From Bacteroidales bacterium (GTDB lineage: Bacteria > Bacteroidota > Bacteroidia > Bacteroidales > UBA3824), in assembly GCA_017417315.1 (NCBI GenBank), contig JAFPZK010000028.1, positions 1 to 55,548 of the forward strand: 55,548 nucleotides of DNA. The letters are read 5' to 3'. Position 1 is the stretch's first letter. The number at the start of each line of letters is the position of its first letter. Position numbers and translations under genes: made by a program. This document shows positions 603-53,402 of the stretch, one piece after another. Under the pieces are notes generated by a model, which was not told the DNA's origin, did not search any database, and saw only the letters and a list, made by a program, of their open reading frames with translations.

Positions 603-2078
603 ATGCAGTTACAAAAGTCTGAAAGTCAACATACTGAGTTTAAAAAGACTTGGCAAGACGAATACCTAAAATGGATTTGTGCATTCGCCAACACCGATGG
701 AGGTGTACTCTATGTCGGTGTTGACGATTTGGGTGAAGTGTGCGGTGTGGACAACAGCAAACGTCTTTGCGAGGACATTCCTAACAAAATTCTGCATACG
801 ATGGGATTGATTTGCGCTGTCAACCTCCACCAAGACGACGGCAAAGATTATCTTCAAATCGTTGTGGAAAAATATCCCTTCCCTGTCAGTTACCACGGCA
901 AGTATTACAAACGTTCAGGCTCTACCACACAGGAAGTTACGGGGTTTGAACTCGATAAGATGATACTTGCCGTCCAAGGCAGGACGTGGGACAGTGTTCC
1001 CGTGCCGTTTGTCAAAGTTGATGATTTAGATAGGGATTCGATAAGGCTTTTCAAACGTATGGCTCTCGACCACAACCGCCTTGACCGAGAATCGTTGGAA
1101 GTGTCTGACGAGGTTTTGATGCGGAATTTGCGTCTGTACGAAAATGATTACCTGACCAAGGCCGCCGTAATGTGCTTTCACCCCGACCCCGAAAAATTTG
1201 TAACTTGCGCCTACATCAAAATCGGCTTTTTTGCCGACAACGACGCCGACATTCTCTATCAAGACGAAATACACGGTTCTCTGATTATGCAGGTGGAAAA
1301 GACTATGGACTTGATTTACACCAAGTATATGAAGGCTCTTATCAGTTACGATGGCATCCACCGCAAAGAAACGTTCTTTTTTCCAAAAGAGGCATTCCGC
1401 GAACTTCTCTTGAACGCCGTCATTCACCGCGACTATATGAAGCCAACCCCCATTCAAATAAGGGTTTACGCTCAAAATATCCGCATTTGGAACTTTGGCA
1501 AAATGCCCGTGGATGTACCTGTGGAGAACCTCTACAAGCCTCATTCCTCCGAACCTCGGAATCCCAACATCGCCAACGTGTTTTTCAAGGCGGGATATGT
1601 GGAGAGTTGGGGACGCGGCTACCATAATATATCCGACATCTGCAAATTCCGCAATGCCAAACTACCTGAACCACAAGAAAATTCAGGCGGCCTTATGGTA
1701 AATTGTCCTGCAAGCGAAAAATACATCAACCTTGCCAAAGAGTTGAAAGTGGACGGGGTTAATGATAAGGTTAATGATGGGGCTAATGATAATAGTGAAA
1801 AATCAGTTACTATCAACCCTCAAAGCCGTGAGTTGATAGAAAAGTTGATAGAAAAGTTGATAGAAAAAGGGCAGACAGAGGGTATTAAATTAACAGAAAA
1901 CCGCATTCGTATATTACGTTTGATACTTGCTAACCCTTATATTACCAAGACAGAAATGGCTGATAATATTGGCATTAGTGAAAATGCTGTTAGCAAAAAC
2001 ATAGAAGCGATGAGAGGAAAGTTGATAAAGCGTGTTGGTCCCGATAAAGGCGGTCTTTGGGAAGTTTTGGGGCAGTAG
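603..2078 (+). CDS. AlbA_2/Schlafen-type ATP-binding protein with C-terminal winged helix
   Basis: 491 aa. The N-terminus (about 5-130) is an AlbA_2 putative DNA-binding domain: ESQHTEFKKTW, then FANTDGGVLYVGVDDLG. A GHKL-type ATPase domain follows at about 265-365, with FRELLLNAVIHRDY as the N-box, IRIWNFGKMP, and the glycine-rich GYVESWGRGYHNI. Residues 385-422 are a low-complexity linker built from VND and LIEK repeats. The last 60 residues form a winged helix (ITKTEMADNIGISENAVSKNI) and end GPDKGGLWEVL. Proteins of this build are often annotated as RecG-like or as putative regulators; the true activity is not established. A paralog of nearly the same length lies at 7667. It is cytoplasmic, with no signal peptide. 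The gene is convergent with the SNF2 gene at 2179. Confidence 0.85.
   Translation: MQLQKSESQHTEFKKTWQDEYLKWICAFANTDGGVLYVGVDDLGEVCGVDNSKRLCEDIPNKILHTMGLICAVNLHQDDGKDYLQIVVEKYPFPVSYHGKYYKRSGSTTQEVTGFELDKMILAVQGRTWDSVPVPFVKVDDLDRDSIRLFKRMALDHNRLDRESLEVSDEVLMRNLRLYENDYLTKAAVMCFHPDPEKFVTCAYIKIGFFADNDADILYQDEIHGSLIMQVEKTMDLIYTKYMKALISYDGIHRKETFFFPKEAFRELLLNAVIHRDYMKPTPIQIRVYAQNIRIWNFGKMPVDVPVENLYKPHSSEPRNPNIANVFFKAGYVESWGRGYHNISDICKFRNAKLPEPQENSGGLMVNCPASEKYINLAKELKVDGVNDKVNDGANDNSEKSVTINPQSRELIEKLIEKLIEKGQTEGIKLTENRIRILRLILANPYITKTEMADNIGISENAVSKNIEAMRGKLIKRVGPDKGGLWEVLGQ
1758..1867 (+). repeat. In-gene tandem repeats in the linker of the AlbA_2 protein
   Basis: Two short repeat runs lie inside the upstream coding region. 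At 1758-1793 a 12- to 15-base unit encodes VNDKVNDGANDN. At 1832-1867 three 12-base copies of gttgatagaaaa encode LIEKLIEKLIEK. They sit between the ATPase domain and the winged helix. The paralog at 7667 carries a different repeat at the same place. Confidence 0.85.
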
Positions 2079-2178: not shown

Positions 2179-4482
2179 CTACTTCATTATCAAATTTTTC
2201 ACTTGTTCAATTGTTAACGAATTAGATTTCACGGCATTAAATATGTCAATGGTCTGTTTTTTAGATTCTTGTAGTTGAAGTATTTTTTCTTCGACTGTGT
2301 TTTTATAAATCAGCCTAAGAACCAATACGTCTTTGCTTTGACCTATGCGGTGGGCACGAGCAAACGCTTGTTCCTCTACTGCGGGATTCCACCAATCATC
2401 TAACATTATAATTTTGTTTGCGGCAGTCAAGTTAAGACCTATCCCTCCGGCTTTCAAACTTATCAAAAATGCTGTAATAGTTTTGTCTGTTTGAAAACGA
2501 TTGACAGGCTCTAATCTGTTAATCGTGCTACCAGTCAATTCAACAAAACCGACTTCACGTTCTGTCAGATGCTTTTTTAACATATCCAAAACTCCGACAA
2601 ATTGTGAAAAAACTATTACTTTGTTCTTTTCGTTTTTAAATTGTTCTATGTAGTTTAATGCCAATTCAAGTTTTGTTGAAATAAATTCTTTGGAACTATT
2701 CAATGATGTCGGCAATAGGTTTGGTGAAACACAAGTTTGACGTAAACGAAGCAAACCTTCCAAAGCAATGCTGTTCAAACGACCCGAAATGCCTGTTTCT
2801 ATTGCCTTGATAAAAACTCCTTGAACCTTATCATAGATGCCACGTTCTTTTTTTGACATTTCGATACGTATTGTTTTTTCAAAACGTTCAGGCAAATCAG
2901 TTAGAACATCTTTTTTGACGCGACGTAAGATAAACGGATTTAATAACTTACTCGACATCTTAACAAACTGTTCGCTTGAATTAAAATTAAGTTTGGCAAT
3001 TCGTGCAAACAAACCCTTAAATTCAGGAATCAGTATGAAGAAATGTGACCAAATATCATTTATTGAATTTTCAATTGGTGTTCCTGTAATGATGATTCTA
3101 TGATTACTTGACAACTTGCTGATTGCCAAATGTTTTTTAGAATCCTTATTTTTTAATACCTGAGCCTCGTCCATTACAATAGTATCGTATTTTATTGATT
3201 TAAAGTAATCTAAATGAATTCTCACAATATCATACGACACCAAATTGATTATACTGTTAGTACGTTTTTCATACTCTTGAACGGATATTTTGTCCGCCAA
3301 AAACGGTATGAATTTTTTGATTTCATTCTCCCAATTGGAAATCAATGATGTTGGTGCTATAATAAGAAACGGTGCTTGGGGGCTTTTGATAGTAGCCAAA
3401 TGAGCCAAAATTTGAACAGTTTTACCGAGTCCCATTTCGTCAGCGAGCAAACAGCCTTTGTTGTTTTTACGCATTTCTTTTAACCAAAGGACTCCTTTAT
3501 TTTGATATGGTCTAAGAGTAGCCTTAAATAATGACTTTAACAGATTTTTATAACTCTGTACTTCTATTTCGGAATTCGGGACGTTTTTCTTGAAAAATTT
3601 TATACAATCCGCCGAAAAAAATTGTTCAACAAAATTTTCGTTTGATTGTTTGTTTACAAAGTCATCGTTTTTCATAATGACAATTTGACCGCTAAATTCC
3701 GCTATATTTCTGTTGTTCAAATACGCAGACAAAATTTGCGTTAGTTCATTATCATTTTGTTTTTTGTCAGTTGAAAACCAAGAAATACCACTCTTATTTG
3801 TTTTCAAGTGTAATTCTGATTTTGCTTTTTTAGAATTTGTAACAAATACCTTCCATTTTTTTGATACTAAGCCTTTAATAAAATCTATATCGAATCCGTT
3901 CAATGTCATTGAAACGGTATTATCTTTATAGTACGGTTTTAAATCAGCAAGATATTTTTGCTCTTCCTGATAATTTCGCATCAAATATCCATTGTTTTGC
4001 GTCTTATATGGATAATCATTATATATTGGGAAAAGAGGAATAATTGCATCTTCATATAGAAAACGCACTTGTATATTCTTAAACCAACTAATTGAATTGT
4101 CAATATATAATTCTCCTCTGATAATTTTTTCTGTTGTATAATTTACAGGATTTTGGCGATTATAATGTGATTGATAAGTATATCTGTGAAGACTGTCGAA
4201 TTTCTTGGTTATGTAGAAGAAAAAACTATTGGATTGAAGTAAATCATCAATAGATTTAATAGCGGTTAAAACATTGGGAATCCGAAATGGCTGATTAATG
4301 TATCCGAGATTATTCAGCAATAGTATAAACTTTTTGGAACCAATTAATTCTGAATGAATTAAATCTTCTGTCGAAAGACGAGTTTGAAAGGGCGATATTC
4401 TATTGGATTCGCCATTACAAATCTCAACCCGAATATCATTGTCTTTAAACAATTCCTGTATGCAAACCAACTTGTAATTCAT
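2179..4482 (-). CDS. SNF2-family helicase/ATPase of the radical SAM operon
   Basis: 767 aa. Residues 1-320 match nothing I recognise. The rest is a complete SNF2 motor: Walker A in LLADEMGLGKT (about 347), DEAQ box in TIVMDEAQVLKN (about 437), motif III ITGTPIENS, and a C-terminal lobe with LKAGGIGLNLTAANKIIML, WNPAVEEQAFARAHRIGQ and NTVEEKI near the end. Such enzymes use ATP to move on double-stranded DNA or remodel protein-DNA complexes. The start lies 2 bases after the stop of the radical SAM gene, so the two are almost certainly translated together. No HNH, nuclease or zinc-finger SWIM motif is seen. A SNF2 motor is an unexpected partner for a peptide-modifying enzyme; its job here is unknown. 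Confidence 0.9.
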   Translation of the reverse strand: MNYKLVCIQELFKDNDIRVEICNGESNRISPFQTRLSTEDLIHSELIGSKKFILLLNNLGYINQPFRIPNVLTAIKSIDDLLQSNSFFFYITKKFDSLHRYTYQSHYNRQNPVNYTTEKIIRGELYIDNSISWFKNIQVRFLYEDAIIPLFPIYNDYPYKTQNNGYLMRNYQEEQKYLADLKPYYKDNTVSMTLNGFDIDFIKGLVSKKWKVFVTNSKKAKSELHLKTNKSGISWFSTDKKQNDNELTQILSAYLNNRNIAEFSGQIVIMKNDDFVNKQSNENFVEQFFSADCIKFFKKNVPNSEIEVQSYKNLLKSLFKATLRPYQNKGVLWLKEMRKNNKGCLLADEMGLGKTVQILAHLATIKSPQAPFLIIAPTSLISNWENEIKKFIPFLADKISVQEYEKRTNSIINLVSYDIVRIHLDYFKSIKYDTIVMDEAQVLKNKDSKKHLAISKLSSNHRIIITGTPIENSINDIWSHFFILIPEFKGLFARIAKLNFNSSEQFVKMSSKLLNPFILRRVKKDVLTDLPERFEKTIRIEMSKKERGIYDKVQGVFIKAIETGISGRLNSIALEGLLRLRQTCVSPNLLPTSLNSSKEFISTKLELALNYIEQFKNEKNKVIVFSQFVGVLDMLKKHLTEREVGFVELTGSTINRLEPVNRFQTDKTITAFLISLKAGGIGLNLTAANKIIMLDDWWNPAVEEQAFARAHRIGQSKDVLVLRLIYKNTVEEKILQLQESKKQTIDIFNAVKSNSLTIEQVKNLIMK

Positions 4483-4484
4483 AG

Positions 4485-5849
4485 TCAGAACTTATAAAAG
4501 TAGTTAAAACTATTAATCATAGTTTCTTCCAAGTTATATTTGAAAGAATTGTTACATTTAATCTGCATTATCTCCTCATTCCAATTATCCAATCTGCCTT
4601 TAAAATTAAAATCATCTATTCGACAGCCACCACAACAAATGTATTTTAAGTAACAAGATGAACAAGGTGAAACATTATCAACAGATGTTTTTTCGTTGAT
4701 TTGCCTTGCCTTTTCAATGAATACTTCAAGAGGTTGTTGCCTAATGTTGCCCAATACATCAACCTCGATTATCCTATTGCAAGTATAAACATTGCCGTCC
4801 GCACCTATGGAGAGACTTCCGAAACCGCAATTTCGGCTGACTACATTCGGTTCATGACCTAAGATGAAATTTGCATACGATGAGTTTTTGTCTATTTTTT
4901 CTTGTTCGGCTTTCATCACCTCAAAATAATGTTCATTTTCTTTATCCGAGTAATGCGTATTTCTGCCCGGCAGCATCTTTTTACTCAATTTAAAGAAGAT
5001 ACAATTATTGGTACGTGACTTTATTGATTCAATCAGTTTATCGTACCTTTGAACGTCTGCAATATTTTCAAATGTGAAAGTAGAAGCGACGTGTGTTCTT
5101 ACACCATTATTGGCAAATCTCACAACAGTATCAACCGCATGGTTAAACATTCTTTTGCCACGAACAAGCGAATATGATTTTTCGTCAACTCCGTCAATAC
5201 TTATTTGAATTTCAGAAATATATTGTGATAATTCATCAATAGTTTGATCATTCCACAGCGTGCCGTTGGATAATACGCTGACAAACAAGCCAATATTATG
5301 CGAGTGCTTTATTATTTCAGCAAATCCACTATGCATGATAGGCTCGCCGCCTGTGAAAGTAATCATTTCTCCGCCTAACTGTTTAAAATCTGTAATTAGC
5401 GATTTCCATTCATCGGTGCAGAGTTCGTTTGTAAGTTTTGAACCTGCATACATAAAGCAATGAGTGCATCTCAAATTACATTCATTAGTGAGATAGATGT
5501 ACAATTTCTTATAGGATTCGCTTTGAAGGCAGTCAATTTTGAGTTCGGTGTTAATGGTCGCAAATTTTCTTGCGAATATTCGTTTTAATAACGACATAAA
5601 CTCGGTTTTCTGTTGTTCGGACTTGATGTGTTGATGAAAAACTTCACCGATAGTTTTCCCGTCAATAAGATCCTCTAAAATTTGTTTTTGAAACTCAGAC
5701 TCAAAAACAATCCAATTGCCTGCATCAACAGAAATAGCAATCAAAAAGCCACCGTGCTTTTTGATGACAATGTTATCAGCGAATCTTAATACATCAGTAC
5801 TTCTTATATTCTGTGAGAATTTCATAGTAGAGAAGAAGTGGGCAGACAA
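4485..5849 (-). CDS. Radical SAM/SPASM peptide maturase with N-terminal RRE-like domain
   Basis: 454 aa. Residues 20-95 (NIVIKKHGGFLIAISVDAG, then helices and GKTIGEV) look like a PqqD-type RiPP recognition domain, the module that binds a precursor leader. The radical SAM cluster motif CNLRCTHC has C124, C128 and C131, with GGEP at 167-170. The SPASM region has a full cysteine set: C341-X10-G-X4-C357, C396-X2-C399-X5-C405-X3-C409, and C432. That predicts two auxiliary 4Fe-4S clusters, as in enzymes that install thioether or carbon cross-links in ribosomal peptides. A second start at Met9 (5825) is possible. The gene lies 27 bases after three small Cys-containing peptides and 2 bases before the SNF2 gene. 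The product of the reaction cannot be read from the sequence. Confidence 0.92.
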   Translation of the reverse strand: MSAHFFSTMKFSQNIRSTDVLRFADNIVIKKHGGFLIAISVDAGNWIVFESEFQKQILEDLIDGKTIGEVFHQHIKSEQQKTEFMSLLKRIFARKFATINTELKIDCLQSESYKKLYIYLTNECNLRCTHCFMYAGSKLTNELCTDEWKSLITDFKQLGGEMITFTGGEPIMHSGFAEIIKHSHNIGLFVSVLSNGTLWNDQTIDELSQYISEIQISIDGVDEKSYSLVRGKRMFNHAVDTVVRFANNGVRTHVASTFTFENIADVQRYDKLIESIKSRTNNCIFFKLSKKMLPGRNTHYSDKENEHYFEVMKAEQEKIDKNSSYANFILGHEPNVVSRNCGFGSLSIGADGNVYTCNRIIEVDVLGNIRQQPLEVFIEKARQINEKTSVDNVSPCSSCYLKYICCGGCRIDDFNFKGRLDNWNEEIMQIKCNNSFKYNLEETMINSFNYFYKF

Positions 5850-5876
5850 TACGATAATATTGACTGCCCGTCTCAG

Positions 5877-5990
5877 TTAGTTGTTATTAACTGAACAGTG
5901 AGTAAAACAATACATTGCATCAACTCTGTCGGAGTCAACAACATTGACTACTTCCCAGTCAAGGGTCAGTTCGAAAGTTTTGTTTTCCAT
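5877..5990 (-). CDS. Candidate RiPP precursor peptide, copy 3 (37 aa)
   Basis: 37 aa. The leader half reads MENKTFELTLDWE, then VVNVVDSDR; the tail is MYCFTHCSVNNN. It shares with its two tandem neighbours an identical length and the pattern MENK[T/S]FELT[L/I]DWE..N.VD[S/T]DR..., ending M.C[F/Y].[H/Y]C.VN. Only the positions between these blocks vary. There is no signal peptide and no double-glycine site. It sits directly upstream of the radical SAM gene, which has a leader-binding domain. C28, F29, C32 and the residues between are the likely modification site by analogy with other SPASM systems; this is inference. Confidence 0.85.
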   Translation of the reverse strand: MENKTFELTLDWEVVNVVDSDRVDAMYCFTHCSVNNN

Positions 5991-6015
5991 TTTTATTTGG
6001 ATTTAATTTGTTTTT

Positions 6016-6040
6016 TCTACTTCCTTTAAGGCGTTTCGAT
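6016..6040 (-). repeat. Conserved 25-base leader element before precursor copy 3
   Basis: A 25-base sequence identical at 6016-6040, 6235-6259 and 6439-6463. Each copy lies 22-26 bases upstream of a precursor start codon. On the coding strand it contains CCTTAAAGG, a near-palindrome, followed by AAGTAGA. It is too far from the start to be a normal ribosome binding site. It may be an mRNA processing or translation-control element, or simply the edge of the duplicated unit. Confidence 0.85.
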
Positions 6041-6098
6041 GTCTCCGTTTATTAGTACTTGACAACACCACCAATGTCATATTTGGCGATGAAAAAAG

Positions 6099-6212
6099 TT
6101 AACTGCGATTAACATCACAATGTTTGAAGCAAAACATAGCACTTACTCTGTCTGTGTCTACAAGGTTTACTTCTTCCCAGTCAAGTGTCAGTTCGAATGA
6201 CTTGTTTTCCAT
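6099..6212 (-). CDS. Candidate RiPP precursor peptide, copy 2 (37 aa)
   Basis: 37 aa. It begins MENKSFELTLDWEEVN, continues LVDTDRVSAM and ends FCFKHCDVNRS. The reading frame stays open upstream, but the start is fixed at 6212 because the two neighbours start at the same MENK. Cys28 and Cys32 are conserved with an aromatic residue at 29 and His/Tyr at 31. The VN after the second Cys is also conserved (positions 34-35), which suggests the tail is recognised or modified and is not just a spacer. It belongs to the same transcript as the copies on both sides. Confidence 0.88.
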   Translation of the reverse strand: MENKSFELTLDWEEVNLVDTDRVSAMFCFKHCDVNRS

Positions 6213-6234
6213 TTTAGATTGATATAAATTTTGT

Positions 6235-6259
6235 TCTACTTCCTTTAAGGCGTTTCGAT
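6235..6259 (-). repeat. Conserved 25-base leader element before precursor copy 2
   Basis: Second copy of the 25-base element, identical to the other two. Similarity to copy 1 continues beyond it at higher coordinates (gattcttcctttt, then tatgt.gcac). That fits tandem duplication of a unit of about 200-220 bases made of leader and peptide. Confidence 0.85.
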
Positions 6260-6298
6260 TCTTCCTTTTTCTTGTTTCTATGTAGCACAAATATGCTC

Positions 6299-6412
6299 TC
6301 AATGAAGGTTAACTTGACAATACTTATAGCAACCCATCGTAGCGAATCTGTCCGAGTCTACAACATTTATTGCTTCCCAATCAATGGTCAATTCGAATGT
6401 TTTGTTTTCCAT
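6299..6412 (-). CDS. Candidate RiPP precursor peptide, copy 1 (37 aa)
   Basis: 37 aa, the first precursor in the direction of transcription. It reads MENKTFELTIDWEAIN, then VVDSDRFATM and GCYKYCQVNLH. It is the most diverged copy: Tyr replaces Phe at 29 and His at 31, and Gly replaces the aromatic at 27. The leader and the positions of both Cys and of VN are nevertheless unchanged. Three copies with a constant leader and a partly varied tail are typical of precursor families processed by one maturase. Confidence 0.88.
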   Translation of the reverse strand: MENKTFELTIDWEAINVVDSDRFATMGCYKYCQVNLH

Positions 6413-6438
6413 TTCTGATTTCTCAATTAAACAATTTC

Positions 6439-6463
6439 TCTACTTCCTTTAAGGCGTTTCGAT
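6439..6463 (-). repeat. Conserved 25-base leader element before precursor copy 1
   Basis: Third copy of the element. It lies between the stop of the 137-aa gene (6507) and the first precursor. No promoter match TAnnTTTG is visible in this gap or between the precursors, so the peptides are probably transcribed from further upstream. Confidence 0.85.
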
Positions 6464-6506
6464 TCTTCCTTTTGTTGTTATTATGTCGCACGAGACTGTT
6501 TGCACT

Positions 6507-6920
6507 TTATGCCTTTCTTTTCTCGTGTTCAGCCATTTGTTGTATTTTGTCGAACGGCACTTCATTGTATAATTCAACAAATTTTTTGTGTACATCTTCA
6601 ATGGTCTTGAATGTGTCAGTATTTTTGCTTTGAATTATTTTGAACATTTTTGATTCAAATTTCTTCAAAGTCTCATCCGAAACAATTTCAGTTTCATCAA
6701 TAGTCACGGACACTCCGTTACTATTACACATATCTTCAATGATTTCTAACACTCTTGAAACCGCCATTGAAGCATTAGGAATGCATTCATCCCATATTTT
6801 TCCAAGTAAAGTCTGATATTTTATCATTCTTTTATACTTAGTACGCCTACGCACTTTTCGGCAGTTCGGCACTTCCGTTTCCTCCTTTGCAAATTTACAA
6901 CCCAACATCCGTTCTGCCAA
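6507..6920 (-). CDS. Unknown protein at the head of the peptide operon
   Basis: 137 aa if started at 6920, or 106 aa if started at Met32 (6827). I do not recognise a family. Residues 1-31 are unusually basic (RKVRRRTKYKR). The rest is predicted mainly helical and acidic (SMAVSRVLEIIEDMC, then VHKKFVELYNEVPFDKI), without signal peptide or membrane segment. A promoter-like TAAATTTG at 6890-6897 lies inside the longer form and favours Met32. It lies between a small regulator and the precursors, on the same strand, and could be an operon-specific accessory or regulatory protein. Confidence 0.65.
   Translation of the reverse strand: MAERMLGCKFAKEETEVPNCRKVRRRTKYKRMIKYQTLLGKIWDECIPNASMAVSRVLEIIEDMCNSNGVSVTIDETEIVSDETLKKFESKMFKIIQSKNTDTFKTIEDVHKKFVELYNEVPFDKIQQMAEHEKRKA
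6890..6920 (-). promoter_or_regulatory. Possible Bacteroidetes promoter for the peptide operon
   Basis: TAAATTTG (6890-6897) matches the -7 consensus TAnnTTTG. TTGG lies 19 bases upstream (6917-6920) as an imperfect -33 element. Transcription from here would cover the unknown protein (from Met32), the three precursors, the maturase and the SNF2 gene. Confidence 0.45.
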
Positions 6921-6958
6921 GCATTTCCCGTGACAATTTGTCCATACTTTTGTGAAAG

Positions 6959-7192
6959 TTAGGCAATGGAATCGTGATTATTTGTCAAGGTCATCGGTTT
7001 GTACAAGGCAAAAAAATTGTAGCCGAGTATCTCAGAAATCTTATAGAGGAGATCTGTATCAATGCTTTTGCGCTTGAAGATGCGGTATATGTTAGAGGGG
7101 TCGCAGTTCAGTTTCTTGGCGAACCAAGTTTTCGGTCGTTCCGTCTTGATGAATACGTCCTCTATTTCGTGTCCTATGTGAATGGTGTTCAT
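6959..7192 (-). CDS. Small XRE-like helix-turn-helix regulator
   Basis: 77 aa from the chosen start MNTIHIGHEIEDV; the frame is open 12 codons further up, but those read RRVSARKARL and look non-coding. KTWFAKKLNCDPSNIYRIFKR is a helix-turn-helix of the Cro/CI kind, followed by SIDTDLLYKISEILGYNFFALY, which is typical of small Bacteroidetes XRE proteins. No second domain for ligand or DNA cleavage is present. It is the first gene of the peptide operon and sits next to a region dense in inverted repeats, so self-regulation through those repeats is likely. Confidence 0.7.
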   Translation of the reverse strand: MNTIHIGHEIEDVFIKTERPKTWFAKKLNCDPSNIYRIFKRKSIDTDLLYKISEILGYNFFALYKPMTLTNNHDSIA

Positions 7193-7666: not shown

Positions 7667-9139
7667 ATGAACGCAGAAAACCAAAACATCGAATACAAGG
7701 AATCTTGGCGCGATGAGTATTTGAAGTGGATTTGCGGCTTTGCAAATGCGCAGGGCGGCAAACTCTACATCGGTATCGACGACGGCGGCAATGTTTGCGG
7801 CGTAAAGGACGCACACCGCCTTTCGGAGGATATTCCTAACAAAATTGTCGCGCTGTTGGGCATTGTAGCCGATGTGAATGTCCATACCAAGGACGGCAAA
7901 GAATACATCGAGATAGACGTTGCACCGAGCAATGTACCTATCTCGCTCAAAGGCGTTTACCATTACCGTTCGGGCAGCACCAAACAGGAGTTGAACGGTA
8001 TTGCCTTGCAACAGTTTGTGCTCAAAAAACTTGGGCGCACTTGGGACGACATTATCTGCGAACAGGCCACCATCAACGACATCGACCGAAAAGCCATAGA
8101 TTATTTTTTGCGCAAATCAGTTGATGCTCAGCGACTTCCCGAAGAAACGCACAACAGTAGCACCGAAGACGTTTTGAAAAATCTTCACCTTATTGATTCT
8201 GACGGCAAACTCAAAAATGCCGCAATCCTTTTGTTTGGCAAGTGTCCGCAGGATTTTATTACGGGTGTGTATTTCAAAATCGGTTTTTTTGGCAAGGACG
8301 ACACCGACCTCATTTTTCAAGACCTTGTGGAAGGCAACATCTTGAAAATGTGCGACACTGTGATTAAAATCCTCAAAGCCAAATACTTGATTTCGCCGAT
8401 ACATTACGAAGGTTTGCAGCGCATCGAACCGCTTGAAATTCCCGAAGATGCATTCCGCGAGGCGATTTTCAATTCTATTATCCACAAGGACTATATGGGC
8501 GTGGCTATTCAGATGAAAGTTTGGCGCGACCGCATAGAACTTTGGAACTACGGACGATTGCCCGAAGAACTCACTATCGCCAAACTCCACGAGCCACACG
8601 CCTCCAACGCCCGCAACAAGAACATTGCATTTGCCTTTTACAAGGCGGGCTTCATCGAGGCTTGGGGACGCGGTATATCAAAAATAGTTACCCAGTTCAC
8701 CGCAGCGGGTCTCAAAGAACCAAAATTTGAGGACTTCTGCGGCGGTGTGCGCGTTACCATTTATCGTAATACTGATTTGGTGGCGGAAACTATTGAAAAA
8801 AACAATGGCGAGGACGTAGAAAAAGAAGGGGAGGTTACAAAAAAGGTCACTGTAAATGAGAGTGAGGTCACCAAAAGGGTCGTAGAAAATACAGAAATTG
8901 CACAGAAAATTGCACAGAAAAATGTACAGAAAATTGCACAGAAAAATGCACAGAAAATCTTTGCGTGTATAAAACGTAATTCGTTGATTACTATTGCTGA
9001 AATGAGCAAGAGGACAAGATTATCAGTAAGGAGTGTCAATTATTACATTGAGCAATTAAAACAACAGGGTTTAATAATCCGTATCGGTCCCGACAAAGGC
9101 GGCCATTGGGAAATTATAAAACAGAATAATAACAATTAA
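7667..9139 (+). CDS. AlbA_2/Schlafen-type ATP-binding protein, second paralog
   Basis: 490 aa from ATG 7667. Domain order is the same as in the gene at 603: AlbA_2 domain (NIEYKESWRDEYLKWICGF, FANAQGGKLYIGIDDGG), GHKL ATPase (FREAIFNSIIHKDYMG, IELWNYGRLPEEL, GFIEAWGRGISKI), repeat linker, winged helix (ITIAEMSKRTRLSVRSVNYYI) ending GPDKGGHWEI. The linker is made of AQKI/AQKN units and differs completely from that of the paralog, although the domains on both sides are similar. The aldo/keto reductase follows after 5 bases and may be read through from this promoter. Confidence 0.87.
   Translation: MNAENQNIEYKESWRDEYLKWICGFANAQGGKLYIGIDDGGNVCGVKDAHRLSEDIPNKIVALLGIVADVNVHTKDGKEYIEIDVAPSNVPISLKGVYHYRSGSTKQELNGIALQQFVLKKLGRTWDDIICEQATINDIDRKAIDYFLRKSVDAQRLPEETHNSSTEDVLKNLHLIDSDGKLKNAAILLFGKCPQDFITGVYFKIGFFGKDDTDLIFQDLVEGNILKMCDTVIKILKAKYLISPIHYEGLQRIEPLEIPEDAFREAIFNSIIHKDYMGVAIQMKVWRDRIELWNYGRLPEELTIAKLHEPHASNARNKNIAFAFYKAGFIEAWGRGISKIVTQFTAAGLKEPKFEDFCGGVRVTIYRNTDLVAETIEKNNGEDVEKEGEVTKKVTVNESEVTKRVVENTEIAQKIAQKNVQKIAQKNAQKIFACIKRNSLITIAEMSKRTRLSVRSVNYYIEQLKQQGLIIRIGPDKGGHWEIIKQNNNN
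8900..8959 (+). repeat. Five 12-base tandem units in the linker of the second AlbA_2 protein
   Basis: Five successive 12-base units based on gcacagaaaatt/gcacagaaaaat encode AQKIAQKNVQKIAQKNAQKI. The unit is a multiple of three, so copy-number changes would alter linker length without breaking the frame. Confidence 0.85.
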
Positions 9140-37158: not shown

Positions 37159-38376
37159 ATGGAAAATAAGAAATTAGCTATATTTGGAGGAGATCCTATT
37201 AGAAAGGATAAAATTTTTTATGGTCGTCAATGTATTGAGGATGATGACATTCAGGCAGTAGATGCAGTTTTGAAGAGTCCATATATAACTTGTGGACCAA
37301 AAGTATTTGAGTTGGAGCAAAAGTTATCTCAATATGTTGGCGCGAAACACGCTGTTGTATGCAGTAATGGTACTGCTGCTCTTCATTGTGCATGTTTGGC
37401 TGCAGGAATTGGTCCTGGTGATGAAGTTATTACTACACCCCTAACATTTGCTGCTAGTGCTAATTGTATTCTTTATTGTGGAGCAAAACCTGTTTTCGCC
37501 GACATAGATCCAGTTACATATAATATTGATCCTATAAGTATCCGTACTCATATTACACCAAAAACTAAGGCCGTAGTGGCGGTGGATTTTACTGGCCAAG
37601 TTGTTAAGATTAAAGAGATTCGAGATATTTGTGATGAGTTTGATTTGGTTTTTATAGAAGATGCTGCACATTCTATTGGTACAAAATATGATGGTGAATG
37701 TGTAGGTAGTTTGGCTGATATGACTTGTTTTAGTTTTCATCCGGTGAAGACTATAACTAGCGGAGAGGGTGGAGCGATTACAACAAATGATGATGGATAT
37801 TACAATAAACTTGTTTTGGCTCATACACATGGTATAACACATGATGAGGCAATGATGGAGGAGGCTCCTCATGAAGGTATTTGGTACTATGAACAGATAG
37901 CGTTGGGTTTTAATTATCGAATGACTGATTTTCAAGCCGCTCTTTTGCTTAGTCAACTTAATAAATTGGAACGTTTCAAGAAACGTCGTCAAGAGATTGT
38001 TGAACGTTATAATGAGGCATTCAAGAATCTTGATGGTATTATAGTTCAACAGGAAATATCTGAATCTGATACTTGTCGTCATCTTTATATTATTCGTCTT
38101 GATTATAATAAACTTACGTGTACGCGAAGAGAGTTCTTTGATGCTATGAGTGCAGAGAATGTACAATGTCAGATTCATTATGTACCTGTTTATTGGTTTC
38201 CTTATTATAAACATTTAGGGTATGAATTGGGGCTTTGTCCAAAAGCAGAAGAAATATATAAAGGTATACTAAGTATTCCGCTTTATCCACTTCTTTCTGA
38301 TGGTGATGTGGAGGATGTTATTTGTGCTGTTACTAAAATTGTAACATTCTACAAAAATCCTAATATGACATTATGA
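37159..38376 (+). CDS. pseC: PseC-type UDP-4-amino-sugar aminotransferase
   Basis: 405 aa, DegT/DnrJ/EryC1 family. It transfers an amino group from glutamate to the 4-keto sugar UDP-2-acetamido-2,6-dideoxy-L-arabino-hexos-4-ulose, the second step to pseudaminic acid. Visible are SPYITCGPKVFELEQKL, AVVCSNGTAALHCACLA, FIEDAAHSIGT, the PLP-binding K197 in FHPVKTITSGEGG, and GFNYRMTDFQAALLLSQL. Codon use is more AT-rich than in the following genes. The stop overlaps the next start (ATGA). No dehydratase PseB precedes it, which is unusual for a pse operon. Confidence 0.93.
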   Translation: MENKKLAIFGGDPIRKDKIFYGRQCIEDDDIQAVDAVLKSPYITCGPKVFELEQKLSQYVGAKHAVVCSNGTAALHCACLAAGIGPGDEVITTPLTFAASANCILYCGAKPVFADIDPVTYNIDPISIRTHITPKTKAVVAVDFTGQVVKIKEIRDICDEFDLVFIEDAAHSIGTKYDGECVGSLADMTCFSFHPVKTITSGEGGAITTNDDGYYNKLVLAHTHGITHDEAMMEEAPHEGIWYYEQIALGFNYRMTDFQAALLLSQLNKLERFKKRRQEIVERYNEAFKNLDGIIVQQEISESDTCRHLYIIRLDYNKLTCTRREFFDAMSAENVQCQIHYVPVYWFPYYKHLGYELGLCPKAEEIYKGILSIPLYPLLSDGDVEDVICAVTKIVTFYKNPNMTL

Positions 38377-39206
38377 AAAATAAAATTGTTCTTGGTACAG
38401 TGCAATTTGGTCTCCAATACGGAGTAAACTCTGCCGGTCGTCCAAATCAAGAGATTGTCAAAAATATTTTGTCAGAGGCTGCAAAAGGAGGTATTTCCGC
38501 ATTGGACACTTCGAGCGCATACGGTAATTCCGAGGAAATACTTGGCGACAGTATTGCTAATCCAAATCCGTTTAAAATAGTCTCAAAATATCCCAAAGGA
38601 GAGTTGTCCGTTGTCGAATCATTTAACGGCTCGTTGAAAAGATTGAAAACAGACAAACTTTATGGTTATCTACTTCATCATTTCGAAGTATATAAGAATA
38701 ATCCTAAAGTTTGGGACGAATTTGTTGCGCTGAAAGAATCAGGAAAAACAAAAAAAATAGGTTTTTCTCTTTACACCCCTGATGAGTTAGAATTTATTCT
38801 TGAAAATAACACGCCGTTTGACTTAATTCAGATACCATTCAATCTCTTCGACAAAAAATTTTTGCCGTATATGAAGAAACTGCACGACGCCGGAGTTGAA
38901 ATTCATGTGAGGAGTACATTCTTGCAGGGATTGTTTTTTAAAGACAGAAACTCATTGCCAAAGAAACTCAAACCGATGGGAAATTATTTGATTCAGTTGG
39001 ATGAGTTTTCAATGAAATCAGGTTTGAGCATTGCTGAAATAGCCCTCAATTATAATATTCAGAATCCGTATATTGATGGCGTGCTTATAGGTGTGGATAA
39101 TGTTTCTCAGTTAAAAATGAATTTGGCGTCAGTGAAGGATATTCCGATTGACGTTGACATAGATGTTAAAGAAAAAGAATTGTTAAACCCTGTAAACTGG
39201 AATTAG
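38373..39206 (+). CDS. Aldo/keto reductase of the nonulosonate block
   Basis: 277 aa. TIM-barrel oxidoreductase with the tetrad Asp and Tyr in SALDTSSAYGNSE, Lys in IVSKYPKG, His in YLLHHFEVY. It is distinct from the enzyme at 9145. It overlaps pseC by four bases and precedes the cytidylyltransferase by one base, so it belongs to the pathway operon. Canonical pseudaminic acid synthesis needs no such reductase; it may act on a keto group in a modified sugar or on the donor of an acyl group. Substrate not predictable. Confidence 0.87.
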   Translation: MKNKIVLGTVQFGLQYGVNSAGRPNQEIVKNILSEAAKGGISALDTSSAYGNSEEILGDSIANPNPFKIVSKYPKGELSVVESFNGSLKRLKTDKLYGYLLHHFEVYKNNPKVWDEFVALKESGKTKKIGFSLYTPDELEFILENNTPFDLIQIPFNLFDKKFLPYMKKLHDAGVEIHVRSTFLQGLFFKDRNSLPKKLKPMGNYLIQLDEFSMKSGLSIAEIALNYNIQNPYIDGVLIGVDNVSQLKMNLASVKDIPIDVDIDVKEKELLNPVNWN

Positions 39207-39207
39207 C

Positions 39208-39984
39208 ATGAAAGTTTTGGCGATAACACAAGCAAGATATGGTTCTACAAGGCTGCCCGCAAAGATTCTCAAGGAGGTTAACGGACAGACCCTACTGGAA
39301 ATTCACCTAAGAAGAATACTCCAAGCCAAGAATGTTGACAAACTAAAAATTGCGACCACCGACGAGGAAGGCTCCAAGTTTATTGTTGAGGTCGCTAATA
39401 AAGTTGGCGTTGAGTATTTCAAGGGTTCAGTGGATGATGTATTGAGTCGTTTTTACGGAACTGCTGCGCCAGAAAAGCCTGATTATGTGGTTAGGCTGAC
39501 ATCAGATTGTCCGTTGATTGATCCCTCAATTATCGACAAAGTGATTGATTATGCAGTGAACCACGATTATGACTATGTAAGGACTGATGCCGCGTCTTTC
39601 CCTGACGGTCTTGATACCGAAGTAATGAAGTTTTCAGCTTTGGAAAAAGCGTATGTTGAGGCAAATATGAAGTCTGAACGCGAACATGTTACTCCATATA
39701 TTTGGAAAAACGGTACGGCGGACGGCGGCTCTATTTTTAAGTCTTACAAACTAAAAAACGAAGCGGGAGAATACAATGCCAACGACTATCGTATTACAAT
39801 TGACGAGCCTGAAGACTTCGAAGTTATCAAGAGGCTTATCGAGGCTTTGGGCATTGATAAAAGTTGGAAAGAATATATTGATTTCCTTGTGGCTCATAAA
39901 GAAATTTATGAAATCAATAGCCGATTCAGCTACAACGAGGGATACGACAAATCAATTAGAAATGACAATACAATAAAAAAATAG
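39208..39984 (+). CDS. spsF: SpsF-like cytidylyltransferase
   Basis: 258 aa, CMP-KDO synthetase/SpsF fold. KVLAITQARYGSTRLPAKIL contains the nucleotide-binding loop (R.GSTRLP.K), VVRLTSDCPLIDPSII the metal and CTP region, and RITIDEPEDFEVIKRL the closing motif. In spore-coat and several nonulosonate clusters such proteins stand where NeuA/PseF does. Here a full PseF is missing (only its tail remains at 41296-41376), so this enzyme is the best candidate for making the CMP-activated sugar. The C-terminal 20 residues are polar and probably disordered. Confidence 0.85.
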   Translation: MKVLAITQARYGSTRLPAKILKEVNGQTLLEIHLRRILQAKNVDKLKIATTDEEGSKFIVEVANKVGVEYFKGSVDDVLSRFYGTAAPEKPDYVVRLTSDCPLIDPSIIDKVIDYAVNHDYDYVRTDAASFPDGLDTEVMKFSALEKAYVEANMKSEREHVTPYIWKNGTADGGSIFKSYKLKNEAGEYNANDYRITIDEPEDFEVIKRLIEALGIDKSWKEYIDFLVAHKEIYEINSRFSYNEGYDKSIRNDNTIKK

Positions 39985-39991
39985 ATTCATA

Positions 39992-41299
39992 ATGGGTACA
40001 GGACAAGAACTCTACAAAAGAGCGAAACAAGTAATTCCTGGCGGCACATCGTTGCTGTCAAAGCGTCCGGAACAATTGTTGCCGGAAAACTGGCCTGCTT
40101 ATTACAGCAAGTCAAAGGGTTGTCGAGTTTGGGATCTTGACGGTCGTGAATATATTGACTGCGGACTGATGGGTGTGGGTACCAATACGCTTGGTTATGC
40201 ACGTGAAGAAGTTGATGAAGCGGTTATGAGGGTAGTTCGCGACGGCAATTTGACTACTTTTAATTGTCCCGAGGAAGTATATCTTGCAGAACGTCTTATA
40301 AAGATGAATCCTTGGGCAGGCGGAGTACGCTACACTCGTGGCGGCGGCGAGGCCAATTCTATGTGTGTACGCATTGCAAGAGCCTTTACAGGCAAGGACA
40401 AGGTGGCAATTTGTGGTTATCATGGATGGCATGACTGGTATGTGTCTGTGAACCTTGGCGAAAGCGATGCCCTTGCAGGTCATCTTCTGCCTGGTATTCC
40501 AACCGCAGGTGTGCCGAAGGAACTTCGTGGAACTTCAATTCCTTTCCATTACAATGATTTTGAAGAAATAGAGAACATCATTAGAAATACAGAGGATCTT
40601 GCAGCGGTCAAGATGGAAGTTTGCCGCAATTTCGGTCCTGAGAAGGGATATTTGGAACATATCCGCAATTTGTGCAATGAATATGGCGTGGTTCTCATTT
40701 TCGACGAATGTACATCAGGTTTCCGTGAGACGTTTGGAGGCCTTCATAAGAAATACGGCGTATATCCTGATATGACCATCTATTCCAAAACTATGGGAAA
40801 CGGTTATGTAATTGCTGCCGTTCTTGGTAAGAAGGAAATTATGGATGCTGCTCAGTGTTCATGGATAAGTTCAACTTTCTGGACTGACCGCATTGGACCG
40901 ACCGCAGCTCTTGCTGCTCTTGATGTGATGGAAAAGACCAAATCTTGGGAGTATATCACAGAAAAGGGAAGGCAAAACAAAGTCCGTTGGCAAGCACTTG
41001 CCGACAAATACGGCTTGAAGATTAACCAATGGGGTATTCCTGCTCTTGCTGGTTTTACCTTTGCTTCGCCTAATGCTCTTGCCTATAAGACCTACATCAC
41101 ACAAGAAATGCTTAAAAAAGGGTACATTGCAGGTAATCTGATGTACACCTGCCTTGCCCACACTGATGAGATTCTTAATGGCTACTTTGAGGCTCTTGAT
41201 CCAATCTTTGCCGACATTCGTGATTTTGAAGACGGCAAAGATGTGATGAAGTCACTTGATGGTCCTGTTTGTCAGGCTGGATTCAAGAGACTCAACTAA
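39992..41299 (+). CDS. Class III aminotransferase, glutamate-1-semialdehyde-mutase-like
   Basis: 435 aa, PLP fold type I. AKQVIPGGTSLLSKRPEQLL at the N-terminus and VRYTRGGGEANSMCVRIAR, YHGWHDWYVS, LIFDECTSGFRETFGG, then the PLP Lys in YSKTMGNGYVIAAVLG. It belongs to the HemL-like branch found in polysaccharide gene clusters, not to haem synthesis, as its neighbours show. It probably adds or moves an amino group on a sugar or a side-chain precursor. Its stop lies inside the relic of pseF, which marks a recombination junction. GC content is higher than in pseC and the later glycosyltransferase genes. Confidence 0.9.
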   Translation: MGTGQELYKRAKQVIPGGTSLLSKRPEQLLPENWPAYYSKSKGCRVWDLDGREYIDCGLMGVGTNTLGYAREEVDEAVMRVVRDGNLTTFNCPEEVYLAERLIKMNPWAGGVRYTRGGGEANSMCVRIARAFTGKDKVAICGYHGWHDWYVSVNLGESDALAGHLLPGIPTAGVPKELRGTSIPFHYNDFEEIENIIRNTEDLAAVKMEVCRNFGPEKGYLEHIRNLCNEYGVVLIFDECTSGFRETFGGLHKKYGVYPDMTIYSKTMGNGYVIAAVLGKKEIMDAAQCSWISSTFWTDRIGPTAALAALDVMEKTKSWEYITEKGRQNKVRWQALADKYGLKINQWGIPALAGFTFASPNALAYKTYITQEMLKKGYIAGNLMYTCLAHTDEILNGYFEALDPIFADIRDFEDGKDVMKSLDGPVCQAGFKRLN

Positions 41300-41376
41300 T
41301 CCAAGACATCGATACCGAGACGGATTGGAAATTGGCGGAAATGAAGTACAAATTGTTGAACGGAGCAAATGCGTAA
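41296..41376 (+). pseudogene. C-terminal relic of a classical pseF
   Basis: The frame 41296-41376 reads LIQDIDTETDWKLAEMKYKL and LNGANA, then a stop. QDIDTExDWKxAExKYK is the usual end of PseF, the CMP-pseudaminic acid synthetase. No start or body is left. Its stop overlaps the pseG start (41369), as in intact pseF-pseG pairs, so pseG's upstream neighbour was once pseF. Confidence 0.75.
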
Positions 41377-42322
41377 GCAAAAAATCTATTTCCGCGCTGA
41401 TGCCGGCGCAAAGATTGGGTACGGACATTTCATCCGTACTCTTGCATTGGCAGATATGTTGAGGGTCGAATTTGACTGCACTTTCTTCACCTCGGTACCT
41501 ACCGAGTACCAAACATCTGAATTAAAGAAAGTTTGCAAATACATTCCGTTGGAGGAAGAAACCAAATTCGACAAATTTCTTGAGTATCTTTGCGGAGATG
41601 AGATTGTTGTCCTCGACAATTATTTCTATTCAACTGAATATCAGAAGCAAATAAAGAGTAAAGGTTGCAAATTAGTTTGCATAGACGACATTCACGACAA
41701 ACATTATGTAGCGGATGTCGTAATTAACCACGCATTGACCGACACAAGTCTTTTTAGTATAGAGCCATATACAAAATTGTGCCTTGGATTTGACTACGCA
41801 TTATTGCGTGCTCCATTCCTAAAACTAGTCTCCAATACATTCAGAAACAATGATTTGATAGTGAATTTTGGCGCGGCAGATCCACACGGGATTACCGACA
41901 AGGTAGTTTCGATGTTGCTGATGATGGACATTCCATATCACATCGTTGTTGTGTTGGGCGACAAGGTTTTTCTGTCGGAAGAAAACAAACAGAAAGTAAG
42001 CACACGGAAAAACCTCACGGCGGAGCAGATGGCAGAACTGTTTGAAAAATCTGCGGCGGGAATCCTTTCCGCAAGCACCGTCTGTATAGAGGCTTTGAGC
42101 CGAAATCTACCATTGGCTGTGGGCTATCACGTGGACAATCAGATAGAATTATATGGTTGTATTGCAAATTCAAAAGCGGTGCTGCCGTTGGGTAATTTGC
42201 AGGAAATAGACATCGTTTCATTGTTGAAGGCAATTAAAAATATTAACTTACAAAACAATAGCAGATTCCCTGACGGCATCAAGGAACGTTATAAAGAATT
42301 GTTTTTGTCGCTTGCGAAATGA
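41369..42322 (+). CDS. pseG: PseG, UDP-sugar hydrolase
   Basis: 317 aa, GT-B-like fold related to MurG. It removes UDP from UDP-2,4-diacetamido-2,4,6-trideoxy-L-altrose. Signs are IYFRADAGAKIGYGHFIRTL with the catalytic His in GYGHF, VVLDNYFYSTEYQ, LVCIDDIHDKHYVADVVINH, LIVNFGAADPHGITDKV and AGILSASTVCIEALSRNLP. In many genomes PseG is fused to or beside PseH. Here pseH overlaps the end by four bases. Confidence 0.93.
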   Translation: MRKQKIYFRADAGAKIGYGHFIRTLALADMLRVEFDCTFFTSVPTEYQTSELKKVCKYIPLEEETKFDKFLEYLCGDEIVVLDNYFYSTEYQKQIKSKGCKLVCIDDIHDKHYVADVVINHALTDTSLFSIEPYTKLCLGFDYALLRAPFLKLVSNTFRNNDLIVNFGAADPHGITDKVVSMLLMMDIPYHIVVVLGDKVFLSEENKQKVSTRKNLTAEQMAELFEKSAAGILSASTVCIEALSRNLPLAVGYHVDNQIELYGCIANSKAVLPLGNLQEIDIVSLLKAIKNINLQNNSRFPDGIKERYKELFLSLAK

Positions 42323-43787: not shown

Positions 43788-43812
43788 TAGTATTGAGTGT
43801 GATTGAAAAATA

Positions 43813-45081: not shown

Positions 45082-45138
45082 AAAATCAATAAGGCAAAAG
45101 AGTATTGCTTCGAATGTTTTCGTATAAATGTTAATGGT

Positions 45139-46248: not shown

Positions 46249-46261
46249 TAGTTGTTGTTAT

Positions 46262-47347: not shown

Positions 47348-47351
47348 AAAA

Positions 47352-48494: not shown

Positions 48495-48527
48495 TATAAT
48501 CTTATTTACTAAATTTAAAAAGCATAT

Positions 48528-49532: not shown

Positions 49533-49533
49533 A

Positions 49534-49920: not shown

Positions 49921-49932
49921 ACCAATTCAATT

Positions 49933-51006: not shown

Positions 51007-51021
51007 TTTAATAATACAAAT

Positions 51022-52227: not shown

Positions 52228-52232
52228 GAATT

Positions 52233-53399: not shown

Positions 53400-53402
53400 A
53401 AA

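What the first reader, a model, noticed from the sequence alone, without database searches (positions are those of the whole stretch)
2179..7192. Radical SAM/SPASM maturase, three 37-aa peptides and a SNF2 helicase in one operon
Seen: a same-strand run of XRE-like regulator, 137-aa unknown, three tandem peptides with the same leader (MENK[TS]FELT[LI]DWE) and Cys-containing tail, a radical SAM protein with complete CNLRCTHC and SPASM cysteine sets and a PqqD-like front domain, and a SNF2 ATPase 2 bases later. Known: SPASM enzymes with RRE domains modify ribosomal peptides. Inference: a RiPP-type system whose effector side involves a DNA motor. I know of no described system with this combination. 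No peptidase or transporter is present, so the peptide may act inside the cell.
Basis: partly seen in the sequence, partly recalled or inferred. Interest (0 to 1): 0.93.

Follow-up and report, generated by a model that had tools for sequence, protein, structure and literature searches.

The report
Crosslinked-peptide module of phage-defence islands
A bacterial operon encoding three tiny peptides, an enzyme predicted to crosslink them and a DNA-motor-like protein has relatives in other bacteria whose genes mostly sit beside one for a predicted nucleotide-altering enzyme and, at several sites, other anti-virus genes, so it is likely a branch of an undescribed peptide-using form of bacterial immunity.

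Summary
In detail: HTH regulator, 137-aa ORF, three 37-aa peptides with one leader, an RRE-bearing radical SAM/SPASM enzyme and, 2 nt later, a SNF2 ATPase. Relatives suggest what it is. Same-clade maturases (46-50% identical, Bacteroidaceae) are followed at once by a SNF2 gene with the window's N-terminal region in 8 of 8 relatives readable there. Upstream, 8 of 8 readable relatives have one peptide with core GAMYCFKxCDVN and an M42 aminopeptidase gene. In 7 of the 8 with SNF2, an RdrB-like adenosine deaminase (RADAR effector family) lies within about 3 kb of the cassette, same strand or convergent; two also have RdrA-like and cyclase-like genes. Neighbours at some loci include BREX, Zac and Thoeris-like genes. 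A sister clade (9 loci) has candidate peptide plus maturase, no such SNF2. No M42 or deaminase was found in the window, though only 2.2 kb is readable beyond its SNF2 gene, and its three peptide cores have diversified. Best reading: a RiPP-type intracellular peptide module of an anti-phage system. Chemistry, defence and mechanism are untested; the literature searches listed showed no description of it.

The parts
6959..7192 (-). XRE-like HTH regulator, 77 aa (ATG start; ORF opens at GTG 7228)
   Evidence: HTH_3 weak 5.5e-4, below cut-off; homologues at 39-45% lie upstream of two sister-clade (B) peptide/maturase loci, L083 and L105
6507..6920 (-). ORF of 137 aa (opens at TTG; may start at an internal ATG), unknown function
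   Evidence: no family above cut-off
6440..6463 (-). 24-nt repeat copy 1, upstream of peptide 1
   Evidence: exact copies, none in 100 shuffles
6299..6412 (-). precursor peptide 1, 37 aa, core ...FATMGCYKYCQVNLH
6236..6259 (-). 24-nt repeat copy 2, upstream of peptide 2
6099..6212 (-). precursor peptide 2, 37 aa, core ...VSAMFCFKHCDVNRS
   Evidence: by eye nearest to the relatives' core GAMYCFKxCDVN[QRK]N
6017..6040 (-). 24-nt repeat copy 3, upstream of peptide 3
5877..5990 (-). precursor peptide 3, 37 aa, core ...VDAMYCFTHCSVNNN
4485..5825 (-). radical SAM/SPASM maturase, 446 aa, N-terminal RRE-like domain (about residues 13-86 of the modelled 447)
2179..4482 (-). SNF2-family ATPase, 767 aa, with an N-terminal region (1-318) shared with the relatives' SNF2 proteins

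Best explanation
The window carries an operon (regulator, 137-aa ORF, three precursor peptides, radical SAM/SPASM enzyme, SNF2 ATPase) that is likely one branch of a peptide-using anti-phage system, in which the enzyme is predicted to crosslink the Cys-x3-Cys core of each peptide and the finished peptide would act inside the cell together with the SNF2 ATPase. Shown by sequence: the gene set; a conserved leader and core; the SNF2 link at 9 of 9 clade-A loci readable there; an M42 peptidase gene beside the peptide in 8 of 8 readable relatives; an RdrB-like deaminase gene beside the cassette in 7 of 8 relatives; known defence genes around some of them. Inferred: the leader is bound by the RRE domain; the radical enzyme makes a thioether-type or other radical crosslink at the core cysteines; in relatives the M42 enzyme trims the leader; with no exporter gene in the cassette, the product stays in the cell. 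Most likely logic (inferred): the SNF2 ATPase, helped in some relatives by a HIRAN-like partner, reads aberrant or phage DNA, and the processed peptide couples that reading to the deaminase, which would turn ATP/dATP into ITP/dITP as RdrB of RADAR does. The window branch shows no peptidase or deaminase in the DNA read, so it would work with other effectors, in trans, or through SNF2 itself; its three diversified cores suggest several targets or specificities.
For: Window genes. Maturase fold and RRE; radical SAM and SPASM cysteines invariant. SNF2 directly downstream in all 8 relatives readable there: (L126 shows only its N-terminal part before the contig ends, seen by eye in the translation). 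62 database proteins share the SNF2 N-terminal region of a relative, at least four with the same longest-contig length as a maturase (10077, 10145, 73555, 6925), i.e. probably the same contigs. Peptide core GAMYCFKxCDVN in 8 of 8 relatives with readable upstream DNA; purifying selection. M42 in the same 8 of 8: (Pfam on one of them). RdrB-like deaminase in 7 of 8; PADLOC RdrB for the five tested; HxH, HxGEDF, DRLGH and NTDDxG motifs complete in 5 of 7, strict patterns missing HxH in L111 and HxGEDF in L125. Background: 6 of 144 Bacteroidaceae genomes hold an RdrB-like gene at E<=1e-15; one is the cassette genome G719, and the RdrB loci of the other five show no maturase or SNF2 relative in the DNA read. 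Defence neighbours: BrxH, PglZ and ZacABC at L110; ThsA-like and PDC-M62A at L124; HEC-02A at L128.
Against: No wet-lab data. The window shows no deaminase, M42 or recognised complete defence system, so the defence reading is carried over from relatives about 50% identical; but the window is the start of its contig and only 2.2 kb lies beyond SNF2, the side on which five of the seven relatives carry the deaminase. Defence islands collect unrelated systems, so adjacency to RdrB could be co-residence. Clade B shows that the peptide/maturase pair has other uses. HIRAN is supported in 2 of 5 partner proteins, below cut-off. The SNF2 N-terminal region gave no usable model (pLDDT 33). No crosslink was observed. 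The Treponema SNF2 pairing may be independent.
Confidence: 0.5

Rival explanations
1. It is a bacteriocin-type or signalling RiPP cluster: the modified peptide would act on other cells, and SNF2 is an accessory gene (regulator or self-protection).
For: Maturase is nearest in profile or fold to StsB, SkfB and CteB, peptide maturases of the sactipeptide/thioether kind. The three window cores differ mostly by amino-acid changing substitutions (25 non-synonymous against 9 synonymous codons), as in peptides under diversifying selection.
Against: No transporter gene within the cassettes by eye (no transporter search was run; an ABC ATP-binding gene lies about 6 kb upstream on the other strand at L126, and a sugar-permease-like gene 3 kb upstream in the window). 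The core is nearly invariant across relatives, unlike most bacteriocins. SNF2 was always present in clade A where readable.
Confidence: 0.2
2. It is an intracellular cofactor- or regulator-type peptide, as in PQQ or mycofactocin: the trimmed, modified core serves as cofactor or ligand of the SNF2 protein for gene regulation unrelated to phages.
For: Near-invariant C-terminal core and a peptidase gene next to the precursor in relatives; the best NCBIfam match of SNF2 is a pilus-regulating Snf2 helicase, below cut-off.
Against: Patchy presence (1 of 18 genomes in the window's family; 11 of 399 in Bacteroidaceae for both clades) and defence genes beside some cassettes suggest a conflict gene set rather than metabolism.
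Confidence: 0.15
3. Two unrelated systems share an island: the peptide/maturase/SNF2/M42 cassette and the RdrB module are independent, and the window simply shows the first alone.
For: The window (no deaminase found), G652 (cassette, no RdrB match in a 75% complete genome) and clade B (no SNF2) show that parts stand alone; defence genes cluster anyway.
Against: 7 of 8 relatives pair them, in four arrangements: same strand downstream (L110, L127), same strand upstream (L123), convergent (L111, L124, L125), same strand upstream with spacer genes (L128). In five of them the gap between SNF2 and the module is -4 to 24 nt. In 5 of 7 the RdrA query found no RdrA-like gene, so RdrB would need another partner.
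Confidence: 0.3

Closest known systems
Peptide-processing modules of NTP-dependent conflict systems (FxSxx-type; Kaur et al. 2020 eLife, PMC7159879; section 24 read in full, passages elsewhere; author name recalled)
   Same: Small precursor with conserved C-terminus, radical SAM-SPASM enzyme and a metallopeptidase coupled to a conflict system; predicted peptide toxin or signal
   Different: Those are zincin-like peptidases with VMAP- or FtsH-ternary cores and AP-ATPase effectors; here M42 peptidase (relatives only), SNF2, RdrB-like deaminase (relatives only); core is CxxxC, not FxSxx
RADAR (RdrA/RdrB; PMC9994260, passages read)
   Same: 7 of 8 relatives carry an RdrB-like deaminase; two carry an RdrA-like ATPase
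   Different: No RdrA-like gene found in 5 of 7; peptide, maturase, M42 and SNF2 added; far below the curated RdrB/RdrA cut-offs for the one protein of each tested (174.6 of 800 and 82.1 of 600 bits); none of it found in the window
Sactipeptide/ranthipeptide maturases (StsB, CteB, SkfB)
   Same: Radical SAM/SPASM peptide maturases, CteB with an aligned N-terminal domain too; cysteine-bearing core; best profile and fold matches
   Different: 144.3 bits against StsB cut-off 625; two-Cys CxxxC core; SNF2 partner; no transporter gene in the cassette
SNF2 proteins of Zorya, DISARM, Dpd, BREX
   Same: SNF2 motor core (best PADLOC match, DpdE, to residues 319-758)
   Different: Zorya, DISARM and Dpd models far below curated cut-off; BrxH matched only in PADLOC, which has no cut-off (8.9e-28); different N-terminal region and partners
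Class II lanthipeptide loci near defence systems (PMC12715929, search listing and start of abstract only)
   Same: RiPP genes near defence genes
   Different: Different maturation class; the text itself was not read

Membership tests
RiPP with RRE-dependent radical SAM/SPASM maturase | short precursor gene adjacent to the maturase, conserved leader | tested here: met
   three in window, one in each of 8 clade-A relatives with readable upstream DNA
RiPP with RRE-dependent radical SAM/SPASM maturase | CxxxCxxC and SPASM cysteines | tested here: met
   invariant in 21 sequences
RiPP with RRE-dependent radical SAM/SPASM maturase | PqqD-like RRE domain | tested here: met
   in a predicted fold only; CteB and TigE alignments begin at model residues 17 and 8
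RiPP with RRE-dependent radical SAM/SPASM maturase | post-translational crosslink | not testable with these tools
   needs mass spectrometry
StsB-type sactipeptide maturase (NF045574) | curated score cut-off 625 | tested here: not met
   144.3 bits
RADAR | RdrA and RdrB genes at the locus | tested here: not met
   neither found in the 55-kb window (only 2.2 kb readable beyond SNF2); relatives have RdrB-like in 7 of 8, RdrA-like in 2
RADAR | RdrB equivalog cut-off (800 bits) | tested here: not met
   174.6 bits for the one relative's protein tested, L110
Zorya / DISARM / Dpd | SNF2 equivalog cut-off and partner genes | tested here: not met
   192, 104.5 and 60.3 bits against 1500, 950 and 500; no partner of these systems among the 9 ORFs of 0.6-9.1 kb scanned with PADLOC
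FxSxx peptide-processing module | FxSxx C-terminal motif | tested here: not met
   cores end CxVNxx
FxSxx peptide-processing module | precursor + radical SAM-SPASM + metallopeptidase | tested here: inconclusive
   met in relatives with an M42 enzyme instead of a zincin; no M42 relative found in the window

The most novel reading that the evidence does not exclude
A new kind of bacterial immunity armed by a radical-crosslinked ribosomal peptide: the peptide is made, trimmed and kept in the cell, a SNF2 motor reads phage DNA, and the peptide couples that reading to an (d)ATP deaminase. The window branch has gone without the deaminase and multiplied and diversified the peptide.
Probability: 0.33. 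Interest if true: 0.95.

Novelty: new variant of a known kind. Interest (0 to 1): 0.85.

Why it matters
If right, it joins two fields that rarely meet: radical SAM peptide chemistry and anti-phage defence. It gives a precise gene set (M42, peptide, maturase, SNF2, RdrB-like) in genomes that apparently include Xylanibacter ruminicola, so both the chemistry and the defence can be tested. It would also show RdrB-like deaminases working without RdrA, with a SNF2 motor and a modified peptide in its place. The near-invariant core GAMYCFKxCDVN points to one conserved intracellular target.

Tried and rejected
Phage or plasmid cargo: viral-contig hits to the maturase are at most 38% identical (77 loci); the 20 phage records listed are at most 29%; all 365 plasmid records with a match are under 60%, and the best near full-length one listed is Treponema pTS1 at 31%. 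RdrB patterns in viral contigs: no match. Rfam at gathering threshold and tRNA genes: none in the window.

SNF2 N-terminal fold: model failed (pLDDT 33, 4 sequences), so no fold search was made with it. HIRAN for the small partner: 2 of 5 members match, best 1.7e-4, below cut-off; used as a hint only.

Treponema pTS1 (L082): the SNF2-type ORF opens 2 nt after the maturase, though the record annotates its start 360 nt later; two short peptides with LTWNV leaders follow a methyltransferase. BLAST aligns only the SNF2 core with the window's, and the tree puts its maturase with clade B, with long-branch doubt. I count it as a possible independent pairing, not as clade A.

Label test: on the 23-row maturase tree the SNF2 label needs 6 changes and is not clearly clustered by shuffling (107 of 500 as low); 4 clade-A database rows of unknown context (P0001, P0003, P0007, P0072) counted as 'no SNF2', so the test says little either way. 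L111 and L112 (partial maturases) were not in the tree.

Neighbour scan: one search tested 10 genes that I picked by eye from the list (loci L110, L123, L124, L128 only); 9 of 10 matched PADLOC profiles at 1e-5 or better, L123's only weakly. This is not an unbiased sample; neighbours at L111, L125, L126 and L127 other than the RdrB module were not scanned, and L126's look like household genes by eye.
Full report
1. What is in the window. On the minus strand, in order of transcription: HTH protein (6959-7192), 137-aa ORF (6507-6920), three 37-aa peptides (6299-6412, 6099-6212, 5877-5990), radical SAM/SPASM protein (4485-5825) and SNF2 ATPase (2179-4482). The gap between the last two is 2 nt. 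The stretch is AT-rich (31-36% GC at 2-7 kb) against 41-50% at 0-2 and 7-12 kb and 37% at 12-14 kb. It lies between two genes of the same domain make-up (Schlafen/AlbA_2, HATPase_c_4, winged helix) on the other strand (603-2078, 7667-9139). Each peptide is preceded by an exact 24-nt repeat, none expected in shuffles; a 21-nt part of it was found in no other of the 153 loci held then except two copies of this same place. The window is the first 55,548 bases of its contig, so only 2.2 kb can be read beyond SNF2.

3. How widespread. A protein search gave 592 relatives; of the 120 listed, three are at 87-93% and the rest at 46-51%, most of 445 aa. Among whole genomes, hits were 2 of 393 and 3 of 391 (order, two overlapping draws) and 1 of 18 (own family), these three counts including the window's genome, then 3 of 31 (family of G274), 3 of 61, 11 of 399, 3 of 188 and 4 of 45 (overlapping Bacteroidaceae sets) (thresholds 1e-40, 1e-60, else 1e-50). 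They fall into clade A (window and G649, G620, G640, G793, G982, G852, G652, G860, G719) and clade B (G274, G496, G460, G940, G730, G588, G800, G1088, G1195); the split is supported in the tree, except that G620 and G640 have partial maturases and were placed by identity, peptide or neighbours. G982 appears to be Xylanibacter ruminicola: its SNF2 N-terminal region is 100% identical to a record of that name on a contig of the same length, 699258. G649's maturase is 96% identical to a Phocaeicola barnesiae protein.

4. SNF2 is part of the set. In clade A a SNF2 gene of the window's type follows the maturase within 5 nt or overlaps it in 7 relatives, and its N-terminal part is readable by eye in the eighth, L126, before the contig ends; G640's contig ends inside the maturase. 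The N-terminal region aligns across the complete ones and is found in 62 database proteins from a relative's query. Clade B: 0 of 9 loci show a related SNF2 in the 13-20 kb loci read.

5. Peptides. Eight clade-A relatives have readable upstream DNA (G620 does not); each has one peptide of 34-37 aa ending [ETA]R[VIM]GAMYCFKxCDVN[QRK]N. L112's core DNA is identical to L110's, so it was dropped from the next count. Over the other 7, pairwise differences at codon positions 1/2/3 are 42/26/179: strong selection on the protein. The three window peptides keep the leader and C[FY]xxCxVN but differ mostly by amino-acid changes (25 non-synonymous against 9 synonymous codons), so they have diversified. 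In clade B each of 9 loci has, by eye, a candidate of 33-45 aa beside the maturase, in most of the form ME[IL]xYxV...C[FY]xxC; L106's candidate is the least alike.

6. The peptidase. An M42 aminopeptidase gene lies directly upstream of the peptide in 8 of 8 clade-A relatives with readable DNA (Pfam PF05343 2.3e-88 for L123's) and beside the maturase in one clade-B locus (L150). None was found in the window.

7. The deaminase. All-against-all comparison of neighbours showed an 847-920-aa protein in 7 of the 8 clade-A relatives with SNF2. It is an RdrB relative (PADLOC best 5e-29 to 2e-32 for the five tested; NCBIfam RdrB 174.6 bits, cut-off 800, for one) and largely keeps the adenosine-deaminase motifs (strict patterns missed HxH in L111 and HxGEDF in L125). 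Arrangements: same strand downstream of SNF2 (L110, 15 nt; L127, via cyclase-like and RdrA-like genes, the first 7 nt away), same strand upstream (L123), convergent (L111, L124, L125), same strand upstream with spacer genes (L128). The eighth, L126, has none in the 9.4 kb upstream that I read and is cut 1.5 kb downstream; its genome G652, 75% complete, gave no RdrB match. A 110-148-aa partner sits by the deaminase in 5; it matches HIRAN weakly in 2 of 5. L127 and L128 instead have RdrA-like ATPases (5.4e-13, 1.3e-13) with a cyclase-like gene in front; the L127 cyclase matches PycC at 9e-22 and the L128 one is its 52% homologue.

8. Is that pairing chance? In 144 Bacteroidaceae genomes only 6 have an RdrB-like gene at E<=1e-15, and only G719, which has the cassette, scores below 1e-60. 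The six RdrB loci of the other five genomes show no maturase or SNF2 relative; three show an RdrA-like gene, and some are cut short by contig ends. Aureibacter and Cetobacterium plasmids show RdrA-like plus RdrB-like, without the cassette. Shared descent of the cassettes means the 7 cases are not independent, but the six with a complete maturase range from 45 to 69% maturase identity, and the seven differ in arrangement.

9. Setting. At L110 the cassette stands between BrxH/PglZ (BREX; 9.8e-122, 1.9e-45) and a Zac set (ZacA 2.2e-82, ZacB 3.2e-129, ZacC 3.5e-268); L124 has ThsA-like (1.4e-31) and PDC-M62A (2.8e-37) genes, L128 HEC-02A (7.3e-138), L123 a weak SIR2-like match (1.1e-9) (10 genes picked by eye). 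This is defence-island company at the loci tested.

10. Reading. Established: a conserved peptide/maturase/SNF2 cassette, linked in relatives to M42 and RdrB-like genes and at some loci to other defence genes. Inferred from named families: RRE binds leader; SPASM enzyme crosslinks at Cys; M42 trims. Inferred from company: defence. Speculative: SNF2 (with a HIRAN-like partner) as DNA sensor and the peptide as coupler to the deaminase. RdrB of RADAR makes ITP/dITP from ATP/dATP, and its overexpression without phage is toxic (PMC9994260, passages), so a switch would be useful; that is an argument, not a result. The window branch shows only the front half.

11. Literature. Ten searches (SNF2 with radical SAM, SPASM and RiPP; M42 peptidase with radical SAM; ranthipeptide with helicase; RdrB with radical SAM; RADAR with SNF2 or HIRAN; RiPP with anti-phage; sactipeptide/ranthipeptide with Bacteroid-, CxxxC or metallopeptidase; RADAR with radical and peptide; Xylanibacter ruminicola with radical SAM; radical SAM with SNF2, peptide and operon) listed no paper whose title or abstract start describes this set; most listed papers were not opened. 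A survey of Bacteroidales RiPPs (PMC10352776) has no occurrence of SNF2, helicase, M42, deaminase or defense in its main text, and a rumen bacteriocin survey (PMC13289728) none of SNF2, helicase, M42, deaminase or SPASM. The nearest idea is the FxSxx peptide-processing module attached to conflict systems (PMC7159879, section 24). The library holds open-licence papers only.

Noticed in passing
window 6017-6040, 6236-6259, 6440-6463: Exact 24-nt element (within a 42-nt repeat, 83-86% alike) upstream of each of the three peptides, better kept than the peptide genes themselves; possible regulatory or recombination element.
   Followed up: partly
window 603-2078 and 7667-9139: Two genes of like make-up (Schlafen/AlbA_2 + HATPase_c_4 + winged helix) flank the operon on the opposite strand.
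   Followed up: no
L127 1549-7163 and L128 131-5790: RADAR-like variant: a cyclase-like gene in front of RdrA-like and RdrB-like genes, near or joined to the peptide cassette; PycC match shown for L127, L128's gene is its homologue.
   Followed up: partly
L082 5154-12695 (Treponema saccharophilum pTS1): Maturase, SNF2-type ORF opening 2 nt later, methyltransferase and two short peptides with LTWNV leaders and several cysteines: similar logic in another phylum.
   Followed up: partly
L083, L105, L106, L129-L132, L150, L151: Sister family of short peptides, mostly ME[IL]xYxV...C[FY]xxC, with its own maturase and no SNF2 found; L150 has an M42 gene adjacent.
   Followed up: partly
L003 7679-10614 (Synergistaceae, goat rumen): Peptide with two Cys-rich repeats followed by two radical SAM genes, the first 34% identical to the window maturase.
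   Followed up: no
window 37159-54593: Run of genes that look, by eye, like a surface-glycan biosynthesis locus.
   Followed up: no
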